A stretch of DNA of 64,000 bases from Pilatotrama ljubarskyi (taxonomy: Eukaryota; Basidiomycota; Agaricomycetes; Polyporales; Polyporaceae). Numbering within the stretch: position 1 is the stretch's first letter; each line of letters starts with the position of its first letter. The notes beneath the pieces were generated by a model that saw nothing but the letters and a program-made list of their open reading frames with translations, made no database searches and had not been told where the DNA came from. The stretch lies in NCBI GenBank assembly GCA_022385805.1, contig MU277732.1:72871-136870 (forward strand), in the 5' to 3' direction. This document shows positions 50,819 through 64,000 of this stretch, piece after piece. Both the position numbers and the translations under genes were made by a program.

Positions 50819-52659
50819 ATGTCCTCTCCAAACGGCCTCATTTGCTTCACGAACTGCTTGCTGCCTACAGAAGATGGGAGTCTTGTACTGAAGGACCTGT
50901 GGATTGACGAGAGACGCGGAGTCATCCTCGATTCCCAACGGACCTTCTTCCAGCGCAAGGAGAGGCCGGACAGGACCATTGACCTCGGCGGGAACATCCT
51001 CAGGTAAGCATGTTAAGCTGCCCAGTTCCATGGGATTGGCATGCAAACTGGACGCAGTCCGGGATTCATAGATATCCAAATAAACGGCGCATATAACTTC
51101 GACTTCTCAGTATACGAAGGCGACGATGAGACCTATAGAGCCGGTCTGAAGCGCGTAGCTGAGAACATTGTTGAGACTGGGGTAACATCGTAAGTACAAA
51201 CCTACGCCAGTTTTCGAGCACGATTGAACGAATCCATGGCGTAGACTGCTGCCTACTATTATCGTGAGTGTCATGGCGTGACTCCCTGCTCAGTGAGGTA
51301 CGAACCAACCTCTCCAGACTCAAGAAAGATCGCTCTACCCGAAACTCCTCCACCTCCTCCGCCCGTACAGCGCTCCCAACTCGGCGACTCTTCTTGGCTG
51401 GCATGCCGAAGGTCCCTTCATCCAGTTTGCTAAGCGCGGCGCGCATGCACCCCAATTCCTGATTTCCGCGAAGGAGGAGCTGAAGTCCTTTGAGGACGTC
51501 TACGGCAAAGAGAACCTCGCCGAGACTGAGGATTGGCTTATGGCCGGGGACGGCCAGGACGCGGTTGGCGTGCGCGTCATCACCGCCGCGCCCGAAATTG
51601 ACGGTGTCATGCCCTCAGTTGACGAGCTTGTCCGTCGTGGGATCGTCTTCTCCATTGGCCACAGGTAAGCTACCCCCTAGCGATATAAGCAAGATATGGC
51701 ACTCACCCGGACGCAGTATCGCGTCAACGGACATCGCGACCGCCGCAGTGCAGCGCGGTGCACGGCTTATCACTCACCTCTTTAACGCAATGCCTCAACT
51801 GCACCACCGGGACCCCTCCATCATCGGCCTGTTGGGGGCGTCTCCACATCTGTCCTCCGCGCATTCCCCGGCGTCGCCGTCGCAGCCGCACTTCCGCGGG
51901 CTTTCATCCCTGCACCGCGTACCGTCGGTGGTGAAGCGCGCGGCGGCGCAGGAGGGCCCGAAGGCGACGTCCGAGGCGTTTGACGACGTGCAGACCCCGC
52001 CGCAGACGCCGGTGCTCCGGGCGCAGGAGGGCTTTGAGCTTGGCCTCCAGAAGGGCAAGGTTGCGGACTTGTCGTTCGAGAGGCCGTTCTACGAGCTCAT
52101 CGTGGACGGGATACACTCGCATCCCAACTCTGTCCGGGTGAGCATCTCTCGTTCTCCCCTGTCTCGACGCGTTTGTTCAATGTACATATCGCAGCTGGCG
52201 TATTCGGCGTACCCTGAAGGCTGCATCCTTATCACCGATGGTAAGTCGCTGGTACAGTCCACTGGGCTGTGCCTCCGGTGCTGATAATTTTTCATCCCCG
52301 CCCCCTTTCCAGCGATGAAAATCCTCGACCCGCACCTCAAGGATGGCGTGCACGAGTGGCGGGACGGCAAGCGCTTCGTCAAAGACGGCGACAAGCTGTA
52401 CCTCGAGGGCACGGACACGCTCGCCGGCTCCGTCGTCACGCTCGACAAGTGCGTGCGCAACTTTTCGCGCTTCACGGGCTGCTCGCTCGGCGAGGCGATC
52501 AAGTGCGCGACGTTCAACCCGGCGCGCTGCCTCGGCCTCGAGCACAAGAAGGGCACGCTCCGCCCCGGCGCAGACGCGGACCTCGCCGTGCTGGACAGGA
52601 AGGGCAACGTGTTGAGCACTTGGGTCAAGGGCCGGGAGGTGTGGACGAGGGCGGAATGA
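50819..52659 (+). CDS. nagA: N-acetylglucosamine-6-phosphate deacetylase
   Basis: Seven exons: 50819-51003, 51058-51189, 51245-51263, 51318-51664, 51717-52137, 52195-52240, 52313-52659; 498 aa. It removes acetate from GlcNAc-6-phosphate, in chitin and amino-sugar breakdown, in the cytosol. Amidohydrolase signatures: [13 protein letters not shown], metal-binding Glu143 in HAEGPF, His227 in IGHS, His248 in THLFNAM, His361 in VDGIHSHP and catalytic Asp383 in ITDAM. Exon 3 is only 19 nt and encodes part of TSLLPTII. An insertion of about 60 residues (about 270-330, Ser/Pro/Gln rich) makes the protein about 100 residues longer than bacterial NagA; it sits between His248 and the substrate-binding His361. 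Family assignment is firm. Confidence 0.93.
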
Positions 52660-53003
52660 GCGGTCTAGTCGCGGTGATAGTGAAGAACGTGTAACTTGTT
52701 CGACTTCTTGATGTGGGGTAGCTGCGAGCATGTACACTCGGATAGGAACGGGACTGGAATAGACTGACCAGTAGTATTAGTGGTAGTAAGAGAAAGGAGG
52801 GCATAGGCGGACGAGAAATACAGGACGCTCGTACAGTCCGTTTTCGTTTCCTTCTGCTCGTAAATAACCCAGGGAATACATCGAAGATCGAAGCAGTGCG
52901 CAGAACGCTCTAGGTAGATAAACCAAAAAACCACAGCACATCGTACACCTCGCACAGTACTGTCGGGATAACAACGCCACAGGACGTCACACTACGCCAA
53001 CGA
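52660..53003. other. Convergent 3' region of nagA and NMNAT
   Basis: 344 bp between two stop codons; it must hold both 3' UTRs. No other signal is seen. Confidence 0.5.
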
Positions 53004-54236
53004 CTACGACGCAGAGGAGGTCGATGCTTCCTTCTCCTTGCCCTTCTCCTTCTCCGCCGCGATCGCGCCCGACGCTGCGGTCGCATTGGGGCCATCATCC
53101 TTGTACAGCCCGTGTTCCTCAATATAGTCCACAACGGGCGCGGGGAGGAGGTAGCGCACGCTCAGCCCGCGGCGGAGGAACAAGCGGACCTTCGTCGACG
53201 ACACGTCGTTCTGGACGAGCTGGTGGATGAGATGGATGTTGTGGCGCCAGCGCGAGAGGCTGTCGATCGCCTGGTCCATGTCCGCGCCCGCGCGCTCGAT
53301 GATGAGGACGCCGTATCGGCCGAGGATGTGATCGAGGTCCGCTTCGGACCACACGCCCGGCTCGCTCATCGTCGCAATGAGGTCAGACCCCGCGAGGAGC
53401 ATAATCCGCGCGGGCTTGCGCGCGCCGTCGGGCGTCTCGATCCCGCCGCGCTTCGTGTTTATCTCGTAGTCGAAGTGGTCGAGCACGACGGCGGTGCGCT
53501 GGTACGACTGGAAGGCCTCCCAGGGGTCGACCATGAGCCATTGTGATGTCTGCTCGGCGGCGAGGTTGCACATGTTCACTCTGCGCGGGACAGCGGATTA
53601 GTCACTGGTATCGGCTATAGCACAAAGGAGTGCGGTATGTGTAGGATGCGCAGACCAGGACGGAGCGCTACATATCGCAGCGGTCCGGCTGACATCGAAC
53701 GAGGGCGGTGCACTCACACTCTGGAAGAGCCCCATAAGACGTACCGACAGAATACTGACACACTATCTGCGCGGGGGGTATGCCAACTTCATCGCAGCAA
53801 CGCAAGATGAGGTGCGGGGCCCTCACGTGACCAAATTCGCGAAGCAGAGATTCCTGGGCTGCGGCCGCAGGGAGCACTGCTTTGCTCCAACCATGCTCAC
53901 ACCACGAACATGACGAGGGTGAAGGAGGATATGCGATGAAACAACGGACACTCACCGATGATGCGCACTGAGGAGGCCGGGTTTCTTGTACTGGTCACTG
54001 ACCGGGCTCAGGTATCCGGCGACGATTTCGAAATCGGTATTTTGCCGGACGTAGTCCTTTGCCATTTCGAACATTCGGAGGTGGAGGTATGTGACGGGGC
54101 TAAATGAGCCGCATGCGACTAGAACGAGAGGCTGCTTGTCTGGGTTGCGGAGGACGCGGGCCAGCCGATGGGTCGGGAACTGGTAATTTGGCGGGTTTGT
54201 GAACTCGCGCGTCGGCGGTGGTGATGCAGAGCTCAT
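53004..54236 (-). CDS. Nicotinamide/nicotinate mononucleotide adenylyltransferase
   Basis: Two minus-strand exons, 54236-53956 and 53580-53004, give 285 aa. The enzyme joins ATP and NMN (or nicotinate mononucleotide) into NAD(+) or its deamido form, the last common step of NAD synthesis. The nucleotidyltransferase signature GSFSPVTYLHLRMFE lies at residues 43-57, with T-x-x-H in place of the HxGH form, as in other eukaryotic NMNATs. The second ATP-binding motif SSTKVR is at 221-226. VDPWEAFQ and AGSDLIATM are also family blocks. The C-terminus ends in a charged Lys/Glu/Ser tail. The intron is 375 nt, long for this genome, but removing it restores AHHRVNMC exactly as the family requires. Confidence 0.92.
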
Positions 54237-55021
54237 GTCTGCGGTATCCGGGTGGGGTATTCAGGGGAAAGGGTTGAGGATGGGGAGGAGACGAGGGGGC
54301 GGAGGGCTTGGATGGTGGCTGAGGAGGCTGAACAGATATCAAGCCGACGAGAGTAAGATGGATACTAGAGTCATCCGTTCCCACGCTGCGTGCGCACTGG
54401 TCTGGCGTTTTGTCCATTTCTGGGTTGCCCGATCGGGCGCACGGAGGCCTCTCGTACTTTCCGAGCCTAGGTTCGGCACATCCGTGGGCGGCGAGCGGGA
54501 GGAAAGATGAAGTGCTGAAGGAGTGGGGAAGACTAGGGCGAGGAGCGTACAAGTACCTTGATGCCTGGCGGAAAACGTCCGGACTGCTGCGAATCTGATC
54601 TACCCGAGCTGGCCGCGCCTCTTTCTATCGTGCACTCATCTGCACATCCCCTACACTTTCAAGAGCTCCATCGAACAAGTTAGAGCGAGTGGAGATCGTC
54701 GCTCTTCCCTTGCAGGCGTCGTGAAGAAATTTCCTGCAGGCCTACGTAGAAGCTTGCACACAGCAGATCGGCCGCTTCTCCGACTTTCGCGGACGACTCC
54801 AGTCGTACTCCATCCAGGCTTTTCCTTCGTGCCTACTCGATTCATGTGCATAAGCACTGCCCCTTGGCTCTAGTACCGCCTACGCTGTTATACACTGCGC
54901 AATTCGCCTATTTGAGCTTATGGCATTCAATCTCGTGTGTCCACGACGTTCTTCAGGTGAGACGTACTCATGATCGGTGCTATAGAGACACGCTCATAAA
55001 GAAGGTGACGCCAAAGCGCGA
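54237..55021. other. Upstream region of NMNAT
   Basis: No gene is seen. The first few hundred bases must contain the NMNAT promoter (minus sense). The right part borders the LTR. Confidence 0.45.
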
Positions 55022-55287
55022 TGTTGAACTAGGCGCTTACTAATAGCAGCATAGTCAACCGGTCGCACTTAGTCATAGGTGCTGACACACGGACAATAGA
55101 GTTCGTGGCTGGTAGATACTGGATAGTTCTAGCACAGCCACATGTACAGTAGTATATAAGACCGCTCTGTAGGAGCGGACCTCTAAGTCGCTTTCTTCTC
55201 TCAACCACTACGTGTGCCTCTATCAAGTGCTCCACAGGTAAGCTGAGCCTAGCGGGCTTTCTGCTGCGTGCCAAGCCCTGCTCAACA
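55022..55287 (+). repeat. Copia-type long terminal repeat
   Basis: A 266-bp unit starts with TGTTG and ends with CAACA, a perfect 5-bp terminal inverted repeat of the TG...CA type. It contains a TATATAA at 55153-55159 and is followed directly by a primer-binding site. The orientation is plus. No second copy and no gag-pol sequence are seen in the window, so the element is truncated or interrupted by the neighbouring DNA transposon. Confidence 0.75.
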
Positions 55288-55302
55288 GGTTATGAGCCCT
55301 GC
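55288..55302 (+). promoter_or_regulatory. Primer-binding site matching initiator tRNA-Met
   Basis: GGTTATGAGCCCTGC touches the LTR end. Its complement GCAGGGCTCATAACC is the anticodon stem-loop of eukaryotic initiator tRNA-Met, as recalled from yeast. Copia-type retrotransposons prime on such a cleaved half-tRNA rather than on the tRNA 3' end. Confidence 0.75.
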
Positions 55303-55391
55303 TTGACATCAGCAAACCGAGCATTTGCATGTAGGCGCCTGTAGACCACGATGGACGAGAGAGAGCGCGACAGGCGCTCGTCGCGCATGAC

Positions 55392-55504
55392 GGGATACTG
55401 GAGAGGAGTTATAGATCTCTGTCGGCGTGCGTCATATGCGGCCTGTACTGTAGAGAGCCCGTCGCATGACGCGAAAAGATGTAGGGCAATACCTGTAAAC
55501 GTCG
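55392..55504 (+). repeat. Candidate left inverted repeat
   Basis: Shares short ordered words (GGGAT-CTG-AG, TGTCG, GGCCT-GTA, GCGAAA, GGGC, CGTCG) with the reverse complement of 63635-63736. Several gaps are needed, so the match is suggestive only. Confidence 0.35.
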
Positions 55505-55669
55505 TATACGAGGTTAGTATGCATTGCGCTCTCGAGTGCTACCATGCCAAGGCTGGCACTGCCGTGAAGTCATATCCTCGCGCACTCCAGTCGGACTTCC
55601 GCCGAGCGCCATTCACTCGCGCATGCCGCTACACTGTATCCAACGATTTCAGGCCAATGCGCGCCATTA

Positions 55670-58600
55670 TTACAGCGGCGCGAAGCCCTCTACGGCAAAG
55701 ACAAAGTCCGGCAAGTCGTCCTCTTCCCCTCCCCACTCGTTCTCTCCGTCACCGTCCTCGCCCACCTCCTCACCTTCCCACCACTCGTCCTCCGCAAAAA
55801 CATCCTCCTCGTCCTCGTCTTGGTCAATCTCGTCCGGCTCGTCGACGTCTGGATCATCTTCCTCAGGCTCGTCTACGTCCGGCTCGGCATCTGACTCAGT
55901 GTCGTCCGCGAGCGTACCTGCGGCCTCATCCTCGTCCTCCAGGCGGCGCACAAGCTCCAGCGCCTGCGCATGATGGCCATCTTCAGCCTGAGAGATCGCT
56001 GAGCGGTCTGTAGGGTCTGGGGATCTAGACGCGTGGCTGGCTGAGCCGAGATAGTCCTCGGGCGCGCCTGGAGGGTTCGCGCGAAGAGCATGCTGCCGGG
56101 ATGTCGCCAAATCGACGCCGTTCTCGCGATGGCCGACGCCTCCGCCGAGATACCGCATGTACATGTCCCGGTCGACGAATCTGGAATATATAGGTCTTTA
56201 GCAAGGGATAAACGACTTAGTTGGGTTATTTGAACACTCACATGCAGGCGTAATAAAGCTCGTAATCCTCGTCGTTGTCAGCTGCACGCCTAGCAAGTCT
56301 TGACGGCGGTAGAAGGTCACCTGTTGTACCATAGGCGAACGCCGGGATAATATAAGCACCTCGGAGGACGTCGCTGGGGTCGACGAAGCCGAAAGGCGTC
56401 TTATTTGGGTCAGCCGTGTCAATGAACCGCAAGCGAGGGAGTCGCCGTTCTTGGAACCCAGACATATACTTGTCCGAGACGTCGAGCTCGAACCATCGCA
56501 CCCACAAGAATTCCACGCGCTGCCATTTCTGCATGGACCGTGTCGCTCCAGGACCGGTGTACCGAACGTCTGCATGGAAGATGTCGACGACCCGGGCATA
56601 CCAGAACGGGTGTGCATCAGAAGTGTCGTCTGCAAGGAGCATGATATCTGCGTGCGTGGAGGGCTTGATAACGTCTTGGTCGCGCCGCATATCGTATGTC
56701 GTGTAGTTCAGCCGGAGGGTCTTATGGCGATAGATCCGCTCGTCTTGAATCTCTATCCCGTCCAGTTGCCTATTTGTGAAGGCCGCGGGCTCGTTCATCG
56801 ATCCAGGATCAAGCATCCTGCCAAGGAGGTGTGCGCGAAGGAGGGGTATGAAGTTCTAGGCATACTGTCAGCCTGCGAAAGGTGATCATGTTGCGAGACA
56901 CATACCTGCACCGCAGGATCACTGTCATGCTGCGCGAGCCAATTACGCAGGCGGAGGGACAGACGACGAGTCTGTGAGATCGCATGATGGTCGCGCGGGT
57001 GGGTCGGTGGCAATGGCGAGTCTGCGCGACGGTCGGATTCGTGGCCGCTGAGCTCATTGGGTTGAGACGTGCTTGCCATTGATCGCGCGCGACGCGCTAA
57101 CCGCAAACGCTCCCTGCGAGGAACATAGTCGTCATGCTCTCGTAGCGCACGGAGAAGCGCGGACCGTCGCTGGTGCTTCGCGATCTGGATTTCGTACTTG
57201 ATTTTGTTAGTGCGCGCGTAGAATCGCTTGACATGCCGGTGCTCCAGCTCGCCCTGCGCCAAGTGAATGAGCTGCGAGCTGATATTAACAAGTCATAGTA
57301 CTTACGACTTGCGTGTTTGTATTATCCAGCGTCCCAACAGCTTCCACCGAGTCGGGATAGTCCGGCAGACTGTGGTACTTGTACGTGTTGAGCACATTGA
57401 ATTGGACGACTTTGTGGGCGCGGTCCGGCGTATCCATACCCTGCTTCTCCTGACGACGCACCCGAGCGTCGGCTTCCTTAGCCAGCTCATGGGTCTCGTA
57501 GCGCTCGCAGGTCGTGCCCGCAAAATGGCGCATTGCTTCCGTCATGTGCCCTGTGGCGGTTCGGAAGATGGCGAGCGTCACTTCGGTATGGAGTCTGAGC
57601 TTCGCAAGAGCGTGCCAGTTTGCAAGCTCGTATAGCAGGTCAGAGACCGTTTGATCATCGCGTTGAGGGAGCAGGCCTTCGATTGCCGGCATAAAACACT
57701 GCGAATTATGTTAGCGCATGTGGGACAGTGCCGCATCGGAGTCGAAGACTCGCTATGAGGAAGTCTTCGTAGTCGCGCGCTGCGAGTTTCTTGCGCGCAC
57801 TGACGTCGTTCCAGAACTTGCGGATCTTGTCGCGCCCAAACGTCGGCATGTCGCTGATGTGCCAAAATCTACCCTAAAGCCGTGGGGTTGAGGCCGAGAG
57901 CCTTTGTAGGTCGAGGCCTCTGACGGGCTGAGCTGAGGTAGATGGCGGGGTCAGGAGATGTAGCGGTTCGGCCGGGGTGCCCTTGAGGCGAACGTCGCGA
58001 TGCGGCAAGGGGATCTAAGCGAACAGAGTCCTTCGCAGGTGTTCGCAAGCTCTTCGCGGATGTTCGCAACCGTTCGCGGGTCTTCGCAGGTACTCGGCAC
58101 GCTCTTCGCAGTCTTGTCGGGCTCAACGCGGACGCGGAGGGACTCGGGGATTCGTCGCAGCTACGCAGTGTTCAATAGCAACTCAGTGTAAGACGCGAAC
58201 AATGAAGAGGAAGGCCAAATGCTCAATAAGAAACTCGACGCGGCGAAGTAGTAAACGCAAGGGGGACGCGAACGCGGACGCAGCTAGGGCTCAGTGAGAT
58301 CTCTGCTCTCGAGAGGGGGGATGGAATCTGGATTGCTGCGCTGCGAAGCGCGAGTATTTTACATCGGTGCCAAAATGGCGTGCTACGCATGTGACCCCGG
58401 ACCGGACCTTCGCGCTGTCGAGCCGGCTGCGAACGCACGGACCTAGCGCCGGGGGCATCTTCAGGGCAGGCTGGTGCGAAGGACTTCGCTCCCCAAACGC
58501 CTGGTCATCCACCGGGTTCTGCGCAATGGCTGCACGCTGGGTTTCTTGCGGGACTTTGCGATCCGTTGCGGAGGCTGCGAAGCTGCGAAGGCGGGCGAAG

Positions 58601-61079
58601 CTGCGAGGGCCTGCGAAGCTGCGAAGAACTGCGAAGAACAGCGAAGATGAGCGAAGATGCGCGAAGGGAGCGGCTTCGGTGCTCCGCGGCCTCGTGCGCG
58701 GAGTGGGGTCGCATCATCGCGCATCCTGAAGATTGTTCTGATGTCAGCATTGTTGCACTGATGATATGCTGCTGTTAGATACGTGTTGAGAATTGCTCAC
58801 CGTCGGTTAAACTCCTGCAGGGCATCGTCGCCCTGTGCAGCTAGAAGGCGGAGAAGATGGGTGAACGTCCCCTTCCACACGCCGAGCTCAAACTCGTGCA
58901 TGAGGTCAGGGACAAAGAGGTCGTAGAAGTTCACGCCGAAACGTGCGAGGCGTGATGAGAACGCGGCCTTCCAGTCACCTGCCATCAGAGAGTTTGCAAT
59001 GAAACGACAACTATCACACGCACCTGTATGGGATTGAGCGATCCAGAATCGAGGTACTTCTTGAGTCTCTTGCTGGACAGCGCGTAACCCTTGTTGAATA
59101 CCAGCTTGCGTGCCCGAAGTATGTCTCGACGGAGCCCAGGGCTGTCAAACCGGCCATTGCCAGCGCGTCGGTCCACGTCATGAGGCATCCCAGCTTCGCA
59201 TAGCTCATCATGAGTGACGAGGCAGCGCGGGCATGGGTGCTTTGAGAGTGGCTTCAGAGCGGTCAGAAGGATCCTTCAAAAAGGCACACCAGGAAGACGT
59301 TAGCATGTGGTTGCAATATGATAGAGAACGACCGACTTACTTCTCGGGATAGTCAGCTGAGTACGTAAATATCCGCGGAAAAATTCGCCGCACGACACCA
59401 TCTCCACAGGTGACCAGGATGCCGTTCTCGTAGGCATCCAAGAACTCGTCGTCAAGGAGCAACAGCCAGATTTGTTGCATGAGCTCCCGCTTGCAGAACG
59501 TGAGGACGTCGGTGGATGGGGTGGAGCGGTGGACTTCTTTATAGTAGTCCTTGAAGTTATCGGGGAGCTGGGAGTATAACAGTCAGTACAGCTTGCTACG
59601 CGACATCCGAGAGGCAACTTACTGAGGGTATGTATGCGAGATGGTGTGCCGCAAATTCAGTAGGCATCCCGCGGATGTACTTCGAGAGATTACCGAGATA
59701 GAGATAGATAGGCCACAGGGCCGCCGAGCCGAAGGATGTGAGGTGGGTGGAATCTGACCAGAGGAGGATTGACGCGATCACGTACTCGACGTGATCTCCA
59801 TCAGCAGGACTACGGGGCCGCGCACGAAGCTTCTCTGCCTCGCGCAGCATGGCATCGCTGTTGTAGCTGTCGGTGTAGACACGTATGGGCGGTGGCGAGT
59901 TGTCATTGGCATCTGCCGCACCCGGGGCTGGCGGATCTGTTGACGTCGACGGCGGAGGAGGTTGCCAGAAGAGCTTGTGGGGAAACCAATGCAACCGCTC
60001 TGCGAAGTGTGCCTCTTCTGCAGCACCTCGGATCACCGCTGTGAGCTTGCGATGATGGACTCCGTTGACCCTGAATGTGGGCGCGGCGGCCTCAGAGGTG
60101 TTCTTGGCCTTCGTCTTCGGGAGCGGGATCTCCACGGAGCTCTCGATCCACCCGTCTTCCTCTGAGAACACACCCTTCTCAGGCAGATGCTGATCGATGG
60201 CCTCCTGGGCTGTGCGCGCGCGGAAGCTCTGCAGATCCTTGGTTGAGAATCCCCTGGAGCAGAGAACGTCGATTAGGTCGTCGAGGTCGTCCATGGATTT
60301 GGTCAGCGAAGCGTTGTAATGCCAGTCATAGAGCCGAAATTGGGAGACATTGGCGAAGGGACCGAACGGTGATGCAGCAGGGGCAGAACGCGGCTCCTCA
60401 GGACACGGCATATTGACTCCGATGGCGCTGTTCCGTGTGAGCCAGAATATTGACTTATATTGCTGTGCTGCTGGGACCTCGGCATCCGGGTCGCGCGCGA
60501 ACGCCTGTGCATCGCTAACAGAAGAGAGGGAGATGTTGGCTTCTGGGTCGCGCTGGGGTGGAACCGCGTACTCCCGATAGATGCCAAGGGAGTCAGGTGG
60601 TGTGCACCATACGTCTTCGTCATCTGCAGCGTCCTCAACTGTAGGCGAGTCGTAGCGTGGTGGTGACGGTGCAGGAGGGTCTGGGAAGGTGTCCTGGAGA
60701 TGGGCTGGGAGATCCTCCTTGGTGGTGGGAATGTAATCAACCAGGCGTTTAGGAATACGTGGGCGGCGGCCAGATCGAGTTGTTGGGGGCGGAGGGGGAG
60801 ATGGCATCCTGGGAGCGACCTGCGTGTATGCGTCAACAATAACGCAGCAATACCCTCAAAAAAATCAGTATAAATTACCTCCGCAAAATCCGCCCCGTCC
60901 CCCTCTAGCCGAGGACGCTTGCGCTGCTGCTCGTCCTCTTCATCCTCGCGGACGCGTTTACTGAGTGCCGTGGCGATACTGGACAGCCTGAGCGTGCACT
61001 TTTTGTGGTGAATTGCGAGGCCATGCTCGCCTTTATCAGTAGTAAAAATGCATCCAGGTGCGCCGCAAGCCACGAGCAT
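55670..61079 (-). CDS. Plavaka-family transposase
   Basis: Ten minus-strand exons: 61079-60879, 60819-59623, 59567-59341, 59273-59024, 58967-58801, 57868-57754, 57698-57306, 57253-56906, 56855-56242, 56180-55670; 1340 aa, open throughout. The N-terminus has a zinc-finger-like CGAPGC...HGLAIHHKKC motif (residues 5-28) and a basic stretch. Core blocks: LLWSDSTHLTSFGSAALWP (Asp423), CPRCLVTHDELC, LFVPDLMHEFELGVWKG (Asp646), ARDYEDFL, GELEHRHVKRFYARTNK (Glu852/Glu854) and FVDRDMYMRYLGGGVGH near the end, followed by an acidic tail. These are characteristic of Plavaka transposases; the named acidic residues are candidates for the catalytic triad. Intron 5 is 932 nt and repeat-bearing; intron 6 (57699-57753) begins with GC. 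Expected to cut and move its own element in the nucleus. Confidence 0.85.
58031..58116 (+). repeat. TTCGC repeat cluster inside transposase intron 5
   Basis: TTCGC occurs seven times in 86 bp, mostly as CTTCGCAG or GTTCGCAA, at irregular spacing of about 10-20 bp. It faces the GCGAA cluster at 58572-58667. Confidence 0.65.
58572..58667 (+). repeat. GCGAA repeat cluster inside transposase intron 5
   Basis: GCGAA occurs nine times in 96 bp, largely as CTGCGAAG, and is the inverse complement of the left cluster. Together they bracket about 455 bp of otherwise unremarkable DNA. Confidence 0.7.
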
Positions 61080-61335
61080 GATGAGGCGTTGTTGAATGAG
61101 CCGGATGAGATTGACGGCGGGAAGGTGAAGTGCGAGGCGCCCAAGACGCGTCGCGCGCCGATCGCGTCTGCGCGCGGTGTTGACACGTGACCGCATATAC
61201 CCAGTCGTCTCCTTGGACTCCAGAGGACGCGACCTCTTCTCGCCCCATCCTGCATTGCGCGTGCTATAAATTCACCGCTGCCCTGGTATTTGAGCACTCC
61301 CCTTCTTGTCCGACAACCACTACCATCCCTCCTCC
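61080..61335. promoter_or_regulatory. Shared promoter of transposase and DUF6698 genes
   Basis: 256 bp separate the two start codons. A TATAAA at 61265-61270 suits the DUF6698 gene (66 bp to its ATG). A CACGTG E-box lies at 61184-61189, about midway. No clear TATA box faces the transposase. Confidence 0.5.
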
Positions 61336-63195
61336 ATGGCACCAGGCTTTTCTAGCCTCGTCCGCGTCTCCAAGACCACCAAAGCTGCGCGGGTGCCTCC
61401 ATCCCCTCCGCGCAACTCCTCCAATGTCCCATCCTCGCCTCCACGTCTCCCGCAGCCTTCTTCACCCACTTCCACGCAGTGTACCAATTCGCGAGCGCCA
61501 CGCGTGCGCCGCCAGCGGCAAGAGGTTGGGTCTGATGAAGAGGACGAAGAGCCAGTGCCGAAGCGTTCAAAGAAGCCCGCGCACCAGAAGAAGAGCGCAT
61601 ATAACGAGGAAAGTGGTGACGACTCATTGCTAGACACCTCCGCCCCTCCCCCGCGTGTTCCACAGGCCATTACGGAGTACAAAACCGTCATGGAATGTGA
61701 CAAGTACTGTTTACTCCATGCACCTGCAACCTATATGCGTGCTAACCATTCCCAGACAGTCCGCGCGCATCCAAAATGGTGTCGAATACCTATACGAAGC
61801 TGCACGCGCCTTGCCACGCGTCATCGGAACATTCGTGGACTACGACACTGTCCTCGTTGAGGGCTTAATTAAGGACGGCAAATTTTCTGATGCTGACCCC
61901 GAGTATCTTGAACGGTAAGTCCGTATGTTCATGTTGATGTCAATATATACTCACAAGCTGTACGTCACACAGCGAGTTCAACAAGTACCGGGAAGTCAGG
62001 GTCTATTATAAGTACCTCAAAGAGGCCATGCCCGGGCTTGCTGATCATACCCCCTACCTCCGGCGCCATCCTGATTTTGTCGGGCAACTCTCGAAATGGG
62101 CAAGTAGTTGATTCTGTCCAGGTAGAACAAGCGGCTCACACATTTGAGCATTTCCGTTTAGTTGAAAAAAGTCGCCGGGAAGGCCCGCAGCGATGATCTC
62201 ACTCGACTGCTTAAGGAGATATATCTCCTCGCGGAGATGCCCAGGGAGCTCCTCGATAAGCCTCGACGGGGATTCCAGCACCCGTTCACTGGGCGGCTCC
62301 TCTGTCCCGTCAAGATGCTGCCACAATTTGATGCTGATCCTGAGAAGTGAGTGCGCATCTGACCCACCATCTCATCACTGACAGTCTTGCACCAGATTCT
62401 GCCGAGAGGTGCGCAATATGACCCCCGCGCGGCTGCCGATCACTGGCTGCGACTACCCGATGTTCCTGTACGACATGAAGCTGTACGTCCCTGGGAAAGC
62501 AAAGCCCGGTTTTATGAAGGGTGGCCTGCTACTGCAGGTAAGTTGCATATTCCCCAGTGCCAATCAGATCACGCAAACTGACAGGCACACTCTCAGGCCG
62601 TCAAGTGCATCATCACTGGTCCTATGTCCGCAAAGGCGTCTTCCAGCGCTGGCAGGGGCCGCACGAAGCCGAAGGGGAAGCCGCCCCTCAGCCGCAAGCT
62701 CCCAGGGTTTGAGGACGGATCGGACTTCGGCATCATGACGATCATCTATGTAGCCGCTCTGGTAGGCCGTGTACCCCGGTGTGCCTTGCTGCGGCGAGAG
62801 CTCATCATCAGGTCCATCATGCTGACACGTTCACAGTTACGCTTTGCGCTCAACTCTCAAGGCGAGTGGTGCGCGGACAATGGCGACTTCGAAGGCCTCC
62901 GATTCACCCGCAGCATTCTCACGATTTTCTTGCGCGACGACAATTACCTCGACGAGATTGAGGAGTGGTACAAACTGTGAGCGCGAACATCAAGACAAGT
63001 ACGCACGCGCATGCTGATACACTTTGTAGCCGCGTGTTCGGGAATCACTCTGACGACGATGAAGGTGCTCCAGATCGACCACCGACCGCATATGACCTGT
63101 TCCTGGCCGAGATTGAGGCTGAGCAGCAGGACGACGAAGAACAGCACCCCAGGAATAATGGCGCGCTCTCGGGAGATGCAGAGTCAGCTGAGTAA
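61336..63195 (+). CDS. DUF6698 protein, transposon-associated
   Basis: Eight exons: 61336-61703, 61756-61914, 61973-62099, 62162-62346, 62396-62537, 62597-62761, 62837-62976, 63030-63195; 483 aa. The first 115 residues are Ser/Pro/Lys-rich and probably unstructured. DUF6698 blocks follow: VAGKARSDDLTRLLKEIYLL, RRGFQHPFTGRLLCPV, GCDYPMFLYDMKLYVPG, GGLLLQAVKCIIT, GIMTIIYVAALLRFALNSQG and EEWYKLRVFGN. The function is unknown; it is divergently paired with the transposase, so a role as its partner or regulator is inferred. Intron 3 (62100-62161) uses a GCAAGT donor. An alternative acceptor at 62585 would add four residues. The last codon GAG and stop TAA overlap a GTAAGT, and splicing there would still end in a stop at once. 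Confidence 0.8.
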
Positions 63196-64000
63196 GTCCC
63201 CTGACGAGAGCGCAGTGCGCCATATGAGCGGATGGTACTGATACAATCGGTTCCCAGGTAGTGACTCCAACTTCCACAGCCTGCCCGTGCCTTCCCACTC
63301 CTTCTTCCTATCGGTGGCCGCTCTCTGCCTGTGCTCTGGTCTTTCTCTCTCTAAATCTGGTCTCATCCTTGGATGCTTCACTGGCCTAAAGCACGGAACT
63401 GCTTATCTCTCGGCGACTCCGCCACTTGGACGGGCACCGCGCGCGCCGGCGCCCATGTAGCTACGTAGATACCGCACTGCCCCGTGGGGCCTAATCAATG
63501 CCAGTTTCATGCGCCATAATGGTTCGGGCTCGCGGTGTATGCGAGTAGCAGTACGGGCGTGCGTTCGCTGCGGCGGCACACAGTATCGCGCAGGAAGGTC
63601 TGAGGCGCGCTGTAATAACCCACAGTGAGTCGGGCGACGTTATACCGCCCTCTATCGCATTTCGCGCCGTACATGACACAAGTTTACAAGGCCTTACGAC
63701 GGGCTCGACATACCTGTGTAGCCTCCTACAGCATCCCGAGCGCCGTTCCGTAGAGTGCTGCAAGCGCGCGCGCCCGAATCTAGACCGCATTGTCAACCTT
63801 CGCGCGCCCGTCTACAGAACACTGTACTATGCCACCGTGGTCTAATAGACTCCATGGGTTCCCGGCATAAGTTCATCGTGTACTACTGGGTCTGTAGCGT
63901 ACTACCTAGCCTATAGACTACCCTAGGTTGCTACAAAACGTTGCGCCGATATGCTGATGGACGCCTGAGCATGCGCCCTCGTTGGCTGCAACTCGGTGCT
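63196..64000. other. Right flank of the transposon
   Basis: No gene is seen. The candidate right inverted repeat lies at 63635-63736. The last 260 bp show nothing recognisable, and the element could run out of the window. Confidence 0.4.
63635..63736 (-). repeat. Candidate right inverted repeat
   Basis: Partner of 55392-55504 in inverse orientation, as described there. Also of note, TAGACCACGGTGG in the minus sense near 63.84 kb resembles TAGACCACGATGG at 55350, further out on the left. Confidence 0.35.

What the first reader, a model, noticed from the sequence alone, without database searches (positions are those of the whole stretch)
55670..63195. Intact two-gene Plavaka transposon with a divergent DUF6698 partner
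A complete 10-exon transposase and a complete 8-exon DUF6698 gene stand head to head over 256 bp, with no lesion in either. Seen: both open frames and all splice signals. Known: Plavaka is a CACTA-related transposon group, and DUF6698 has no assigned role. Inferred: the pair forms one mobile unit in which the DUF6698 protein helps or restrains transposition.
Basis: partly seen in the sequence, partly recalled or inferred. Interest (0 to 1): 0.75.

Follow-up and report, generated by a model that had tools for sequence, protein, structure and literature searches.

The report
Two-gene mushroom transposon, slightly damaged
This stretch of a wood-rot fungus genome holds a complete jumping-gene unit that carries two genes head to head, a cutting-and-pasting enzyme and a partner of unknown role, and the evidence indicates that the two have moved and evolved together for a long time.

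Summary
The two genes are there, and they form one mobile unit. The element runs 55307-63959 (8,653 bp), with ends CATCAGCA...TGCTGATG and a 2-bp duplication (GA). It sits inside an LTR-like repeat whose uninterrupted copies show the empty site. Ends and duplication fit PlavakaB (Kojima 2025).

All 12 DUF6698 loci found in this genome lie beside a transposase of one Plavaka lineage, 11 divergently. Five of 8 loci searched have both ends plus a duplication. The gene trees agree (Mantel r 0.96, 9 loci). In the one unsaturated comparison both genes are under purifying selection (dN/dS 0.12 and 0.08). Short derivatives without the genes share both ends.

The role of DUF6698 is not shown. My best guess is a transposition cofactor, like TNPA of En/Spm. 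No paper in the searched library names DUF6698. New variant of a known kind.

The parts
55307..63959 (.). Whole element, 8,653 bp: PlavakaB-type DNA transposon with two divergent genes
   Evidence: Inverted ends plus 2-bp duplication; uninterrupted copies of the host repeat give the empty site; non-autonomous elements share both ends to the base
55307..55314 (+). Left terminal inverted repeat CATCAGCA
63952..63959 (-). Right terminal inverted repeat (reads TGCTGATG on +)
55305..55306 (.). Target site duplication GA, left copy
   Evidence: filled TTGA[element]GACGCC against empty TTGATGCC
63960..63961 (.). Target site duplication GA, right copy
55022..55306 (.). LTR-like repeat interrupted by the element, left part (continues at 63960-64000)
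   Evidence: 42 further matches at 90-99% identity (capped list); the right part follows it directly in 12 of 15 places where the right part was found
55670..61079 (-). Transposase gene, exons 61079-60879, 60819-59623, 59567-59341, 59273-59020, 58978-58801, 57868-57754, 57698-57306, 57253-56906, 56855-56242, 56180-55670
   Evidence: model; PF18759, E 1.8e-24
57855..58716 (.). 862-bp repeat inserted at the start of transposase exon 6; candidate duplication TCGC at 57851-57854 and 58717-58720
61336..63195 (+). DUF6698 gene, 8 exons, 483 aa
   Evidence: PF20414 E 6.5e-40
61080..61335 (.). 256-bp divergent interval, presumed shared promoter region
   Evidence: coordinates; function inferred
63831..63959 (.). 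Right end block of about 129 bp shared with non-autonomous elements
55307..55477 (.). Left end block (69-171 bp) shared with non-autonomous elements

Best explanation
The stretch is one cut-and-paste DNA transposon of the PlavakaB type that carries two genes head to head. The transposase cuts at CATCA...TGATG ends and leaves a 2-bp duplication. The DUF6698 protein is a conserved second component of the same element, most likely a cofactor that works with the transposase, for example by binding the terminal regions or by holding the two ends together, much as TNPA works with TNPD in plant En/Spm. Shown: one unit, joint movement, joint descent, selection on both genes in one pair of copies. Inferred: that DUF6698 acts in transposition, and that it acts positively. 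The window copy itself has an insertion in its transposase and may now depend on other copies.
For: Ends, duplication and empty site. 12 of 12 DUF6698 loci found adjoin this transposase lineage, 11 of 12 divergent. Ends plus 2-bp duplication at 5 of 8 loci searched: window, C60, C28a, C3, C122. Whole-unit copies: C111/C122 DNA similarity begins exactly at the right terminus and runs in two blocks through both genes, and C28a/C3 blocks begin and end at both termini. Congruent gene trees, Mantel r 0.96, P 0.0001 for 9 loci; r 0.80, P 0.006 for 7 loci after one of each close pair was dropped. dN/dS C111/C122 0.12 for the transposase (1,091 codons) and 0.08 for DUF6698 (203 codons). Non-autonomous derivatives with the same ends. 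Outside this genome: Trametes pubescens TRAPUB_2243 (DUF6698) and TRAPUB_2244 (Plavaka) on a 7,639-bp contig, and a T. cingulata pair on a 29,324-bp contig.
Against: No fold match for DUF6698 in the PDB, so no structural hint of DNA binding. No clear array of subterminal repeats: excess shared words at the ends in 3 of 5 elements, none in C60 and a weak one in C28a. Other Plavaka loci in the same genome have no DUF6698 match nearby, so it is not needed by Plavaka transposases in general. Between distant lineages DUF6698 changes faster than the transposase (identity 22-43% against 38-55%; rough dN/dS up to 0.44 for window/C60). For 13 of 29 DUF6698 proteins (12 from Suillus, Coprinellus and Lentinula, 1 from a metagenome) no partner was seen in the truncated list.
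Confidence: 0.55

Rival explanations
1. DUF6698 is an anti-silencing factor: it keeps the element expressed by removing or blocking host chromatin marks and does not take part in the cutting reaction, as proposed for the TET/JBP genes of other fungal transposons, some of them PlavakaB.
For: Some PlavakaB families carry a TET/JBP dioxygenase, and such a role is proposed for transposon TET/JBP genes (PMC12730594, passages and part of the discussion read). An anti-silencing gene would also be co-inherited and under purifying selection.
Against: The DUF6698 proteins scanned match no enzyme family in Pfam and the predicted fold matches none in the PDB. A factor acting in trans on all elements might be expected to swap between lineages, as TET/JBP genes are reported to do; here the trees agree.
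Confidence: 0.2
2. DUF6698 is a self-limiting regulator that binds the shared 256-bp interval or the transposase and lowers transposition.
For: Divergent genes over a short shared interval suit autoregulation (reasoning). The window copy has no close DNA relative in this genome, and the C111 lineage has one, C122.
Against: Low copy number alone does not show restraint. Why a selfish lineage would keep a restrainer over deep divergence is harder to explain (reasoning).
Confidence: 0.12
3. DUF6698 is a captured passenger or a host-benefit gene carried by the element, with no role in movement.
For: Cargo genes are known in fungal mobile elements (recalled, not tested here).
Against: Same partner and nearly always the same orientation, and matching trees across lineages that differ by about 60% of transposase residues.
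Confidence: 0.1
4. The adjacency is a coincidence and the genes are separate.
For: One locus of 12 (C19) has the genes in tandem and no ends were found there.
Against: 12 of 12 loci linked; termini enclose both genes; empty sites lack both.
Confidence: 0.01

Closest known systems
PlavakaB transposons (Kojima 2025, PMC12730594; abstract, passages and part 1 of 2 of the discussion read)
   Same: Plavaka transposase domain, CATCA...TGATG termini, 2-bp target duplication, Agaricomycete host
   Different: Second gene is DUF6698, not TET/JBP. The text search for DUF6698 found no paper; the supplementary sequences were not seen.
En/Spm (CACTA) with TNPA and TNPD (PMC2613891, passages read)
   Same: Related transposase superfamily; two element-encoded proteins, large transposase plus smaller partner; derivatives that keep the ends
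   Different: Termini and duplication differ (CACTA and 3 bp against CATCA and 2 bp); separate divergent genes, not one spliced locus; no subterminal array shown; homology to TNPA not tested
Pfam PF20414 DUF6698
   Same: Window protein matches over profile positions 2-206 of 206
   Different: The Pfam description is 'family of unknown function'; no link to transposons is given there
PIF/Harbinger (Nuwa) with a Myb/SANT second protein
   Same: Two-gene DNA transposon with an accessory protein (named in PMC12730594)
   Different: Different transposase superfamily (recalled); the window DUF6698 protein matches no Myb/SANT profile in Pfam

Membership tests
Plavaka / PlavakaB | Plavaka transposase domain (PF18759) above its cut-off | tested here: met
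   87 bits against 26.3, E 1.8e-24
Plavaka / PlavakaB | Termini 5'-CATCA...TGATG-3' | tested here: met
   55307 CATCAGCA, TGCTGATG 63959
Plavaka / PlavakaB | 2- or 3-bp target duplication | tested here: met
   GA, confirmed against two aligned empty copies
[quoted passage not shown]
   Invariant D409, D524, C542, C545, E821, E823 (P0057 numbering) in the 15-row alignment, kept in the window model as SDSTHL, ADYPEK, CPRC, GELEHR (by eye); the H pair was not assigned
Plavaka / PlavakaB | Tree position in PlavakaB and not PlavakaA | not tested
   Kojima's sequences were not at hand; placement rests on termini and duplication
DUF6698 (PF20414) | Score above the curated cut-off over the whole profile | tested here: met
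   137.5 bits against 23.7, profile 2-206 of 206
CACTA (En/Spm) proper | CAC...GTG termini with 3-bp duplication | tested here: not met
   CATCA...TGATG and 2 bp
CACTA (En/Spm) proper | Array of subterminal repeats bound by the second protein | tested here: inconclusive
   Excess shared 11-mers at the ends in 3 of 5 elements; binding not testable here

The most novel reading that the evidence does not exclude
DUF6698 is the second essential subunit of a distinct two-component Plavaka lineage, with a fold unlike any solved DNA-binding or transposition protein, and DUF6698 genes annotated across Agaricomycete genomes are transposon genes of this lineage and not host genes.
Probability: 0.4. Interest if true: 0.7.

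Novelty: new variant of a known kind. Interest (0 to 1): 0.56.

Why it matters
It gives a protein family of unknown function a concrete home and a testable role, and it supplies exact ends for a mini-element assay. It also shows that in this Plavaka lineage a second gene has stayed with the transposase through deep divergence. In the searched library this partnership was not found: 0 papers hold the word DUF6698; of the 11 that hold Plavaka I read passages in three only. If the link holds in other species, annotators could treat DUF6698 as a transposon marker in polypore genomes.

Tried and rejected

Fusion proteins: no listed homolog carried both Pfam domains (only the best 120 of 680 transposase hits were listed).

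Tree of 84 transposases labelled by 'DUF6698 on a contig of the same length' showed weak clustering only (9 changes, shuffled mean 11.4, 13 of 500 shuffles as low). Its labels are incomplete: P0115, labelled unlinked, proved to be the C28b copy, which is linked, and P0097, 87% identical to P0102, is probably the C122 copy (also 87% to C111), although the NCBI contig lengths of both differ from those here.

Ends search: 8 loci could be searched on both sides. The pattern (CATC or ATCA with a 2- or 3-bp duplication) was set after the window's ends and Kojima's description were known. C111, C64 and C28b gave no terminus pair with a duplication. By eye, one search shows likely ends without a matching duplication at C64, C28b and C95, one end only at C111, C126 and C83, and none at C19. 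Shuffles kept single-base composition only.

The 2-bp duplication fits 4 of 7 non-autonomous elements with both ends seen (L071, L072, L076, L077; not L073, L074, L078; L077 read by eye after a shift in the printed end); 4 further right-end matches had no left end in the fetched stretch.

Mantel test: 9 of 12 loci used; C126, C95 and C83 dropped because the transposase is partial or, at C83, not found by the profile. A first attempt failed with an error. dN/dS: 11 locus pairs were asked for; in three the transposase could not be compared (C83). Apart from C111/C122, dS is above 1.3 or undefined, so values such as 0.06 and 0.11 for C28a/C3 are weak support.

Plavaka loci of weak profile score without a DUF6698 match nearby (C27, C5, C13, C8, C38 at 252 kb, C60 at 96 kb) do not appear in the two transposase searches (43 of 68 and 43 of 69 candidates scored). 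I did not establish which lineage they belong to. C164, C114 and C141 are of this lineage by those searches but are cut by contig ends (for C141 inferred from the missing N-terminal part).

Viral contigs: 43 stretches matched the transposase patterns, none confirmed.
Full report
What is in the sequence. The transposase frame (minus strand, 61079-55670, ten exons, 1,345 aa) and the DUF6698 frame (plus strand, 61336-63195, eight exons, 483 aa) are present as described, with 256 bp between start codons. Pfam gives PF18759 Plavaka, E 1.8e-24, for the first and PF20414 DUF6698, E 6.5e-40, for the second. The window is contig C63, 72871-136870, of a 33.1-Mb genome.

Intron 5 of the transposase contains an 862-bp repeat (57855-58716); a capped search lists 42 further matches in this genome at 80-100% identity, some of them fragments. 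It is flanked by TCGC on both sides; by eye 2 of 9 other copies also show a matching 4 bp, and 4 of 9 share sequence beyond the right end. Of 120 relatives scanned, 28 match the surrounding motif, 27 with 11 residues and 1 with 16; the window model has 14. The copy may still be expressed by exonisation of the repeat end, or may be dead; no RNA data were available. Two introns are GC-AG (the DUF6698 one read by eye). The NCBI model of the DUF6698 gene (P0001, 305 aa) differs from the 483-aa model at several exon borders.

The ends. DNA searches of the flanks showed that 55022-55306 and 63960-64000 are two halves of one repeat: at 12 of 15 places where the right half was found, the left half adjoins it without the 8.65 kb between. 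Two such copies were aligned base by base: empty site CTGCTTGATGCC, filled site CTGCTTGA[8,653 bp]GACGCC, a 2-bp duplication GA plus one substitution. The element starts CATCAGCA and ends TGCTGATG. These are the PlavakaB features given by Kojima 2025 (PMC12730594, passages read): CATCA...TGATG and 2- or 3-bp duplications. Both genes lie inside, so they arrived together. The interrupted repeat is 97-99% identical to the three copies compared, so the insertion is probably not ancient.

Derivatives. Six elements of 1.37-1.49 kb share the first 69-171 bp and last 122-129 bp of the window element exactly to its ends. Among 7 with both ends visible, 4 have matching 2-bp duplications. They look like non-autonomous relatives, and they confirm the boundaries independently.

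The pair elsewhere in the genome. A DUF6698 search gave 34 exon matches that group into 12 loci (all 30 first-look candidates scored). All 12 have a transposase match of this lineage nearby: eleven divergent (C60, C28 twice, C111, C3, C64, C122, C63, C126, C83, C95) and one in tandem on the same strand (C19). Three of these rest on partial transposases: at C95 the C-terminal part, at C126 the first part before the contig ends, and at C83 only a 57-residue piece (43% identity, E 5e-7) that the profile search did not find. The strong-scoring Plavaka group in the same genome (C6, C29, C51, C23, C11, C21, C88 and others) has no DUF6698 match near it, nor do six weak-scoring loci whose lineage I did not establish. 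So the partnership belongs to part of the Plavaka loci here. Three more loci of this lineage (C164, C114, C141) are cut by contig ends and say nothing.

The unit as a whole was copied. A search for inverted CATC-type ends with 2- or 3-bp duplications gave one solution each at 5 of 8 loci: window (GA), C60 (GT), C28a (GG), C3 (GC), C122 (AG), lengths 7.6-8.7 kb; at each locus at least 39 of 40 shuffles gave none or scored at most 8.5, against 9 to 15 for the hits. C111 and C122 are 80-84% identical in DNA from the right terminus through DUF6698, interval and transposase, in two blocks, up to a nested 1.6-kb element in C111; C28a and C3 share blocks that begin and end at both termini.

Shared descent and selection. 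Over 9 loci with both proteins nearly complete, distances correlate (r 0.96, P 0.0001; r 0.80, P 0.006 for 7 loci), and both trees hold the groups C111+C122 with C28b, C28a+C3 with C64, and C60 with the window. DUF6698 is the faster of the two between distant lineages (22-43% identity against 38-55%). For C111/C122, dN/dS is 0.12 (transposase) and 0.08 (DUF6698); in the other pairs compared dS is above 1.3 or undefined, with rough ratios from 0.06 to 0.44.

Other fungi. No tool here gives fungal gene order, so contig lengths were compared. Of 14 DUF6698 proteins from other Polyporales, 6 share species and contig length with a Plavaka protein among the 120 listed of 680; of 13 others (12 from Suillus, Coprinellus and Lentinula, 1 metagenomic) none do. 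Only two of the six contigs are short: Trametes pubescens, 7,639 bp, with consecutive locus tags TRAPUB_2243 and TRAPUB_2244, and T. cingulata, 29,324 bp. The other four are 0.4-1.1 Mb, so they show little. The truncated list makes these counts lower bounds, and the link outside Polyporales is open.

How it probably works. The transposase keeps the acidic and cysteine residues that are invariant among 15 relatives. In plant En/Spm two proteins are required, the transposase TNPD and TNPA, which binds subterminal repeats (PMC2613891, passages read). DUF6698 may play a similar part: its core is basic (pI about 9.2) and helical by prediction, but no fold match or clear subterminal array backs this. 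Anti-silencing, as proposed for TET/JBP genes of other fungal transposons, is the main rival.

Novelty. The search 'DUF6698' found 0 papers. 'Plavaka' found 11; I read passages in three (PMC12730594, PMC9674265, PMC8290104), and none of those passages names this partner. Papers behind subscription and the supplements of Kojima 2025 were not seen.

Noticed in passing
C129:11334-12190 (G000): The same repeat family that interrupts the window transposase also lies between two pieces of a Plavaka transposase at C129.
   Followed up: no
C111:57927-59524 and C126:43627-45229: Nested elements of about 1.6 kb with CATCAGGAAAAAGC ends and 2-bp duplications (TC, TA) inside or next to two of the DUF6698 elements.
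   Followed up: partly
C19:413045-419586: The most divergent pair has transposase and DUF6698 on the same strand; no ends were found.
   Followed up: partly
L068-L078 (C150, C39, C83, C21, C42, C48, C19, C73, C166, C66, C7): Eleven places share the window element's right end; seven also have a left end of the same type, and six of these were compared in full.
   Followed up: yes
window 55022-55306 and 63960-64000: Abundant LTR-like repeat, 42 further matches at 90-99% identity in a capped list; may be a solo LTR of a recent retroelement.
   Followed up: no
window 50830-54240: Flanking frames that by eye resemble an N-acetylglucosamine-6-phosphate deacetylase (+) and a nicotinamide-nucleotide adenylyltransferase (-); names recalled, not tested.
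   Followed up: no
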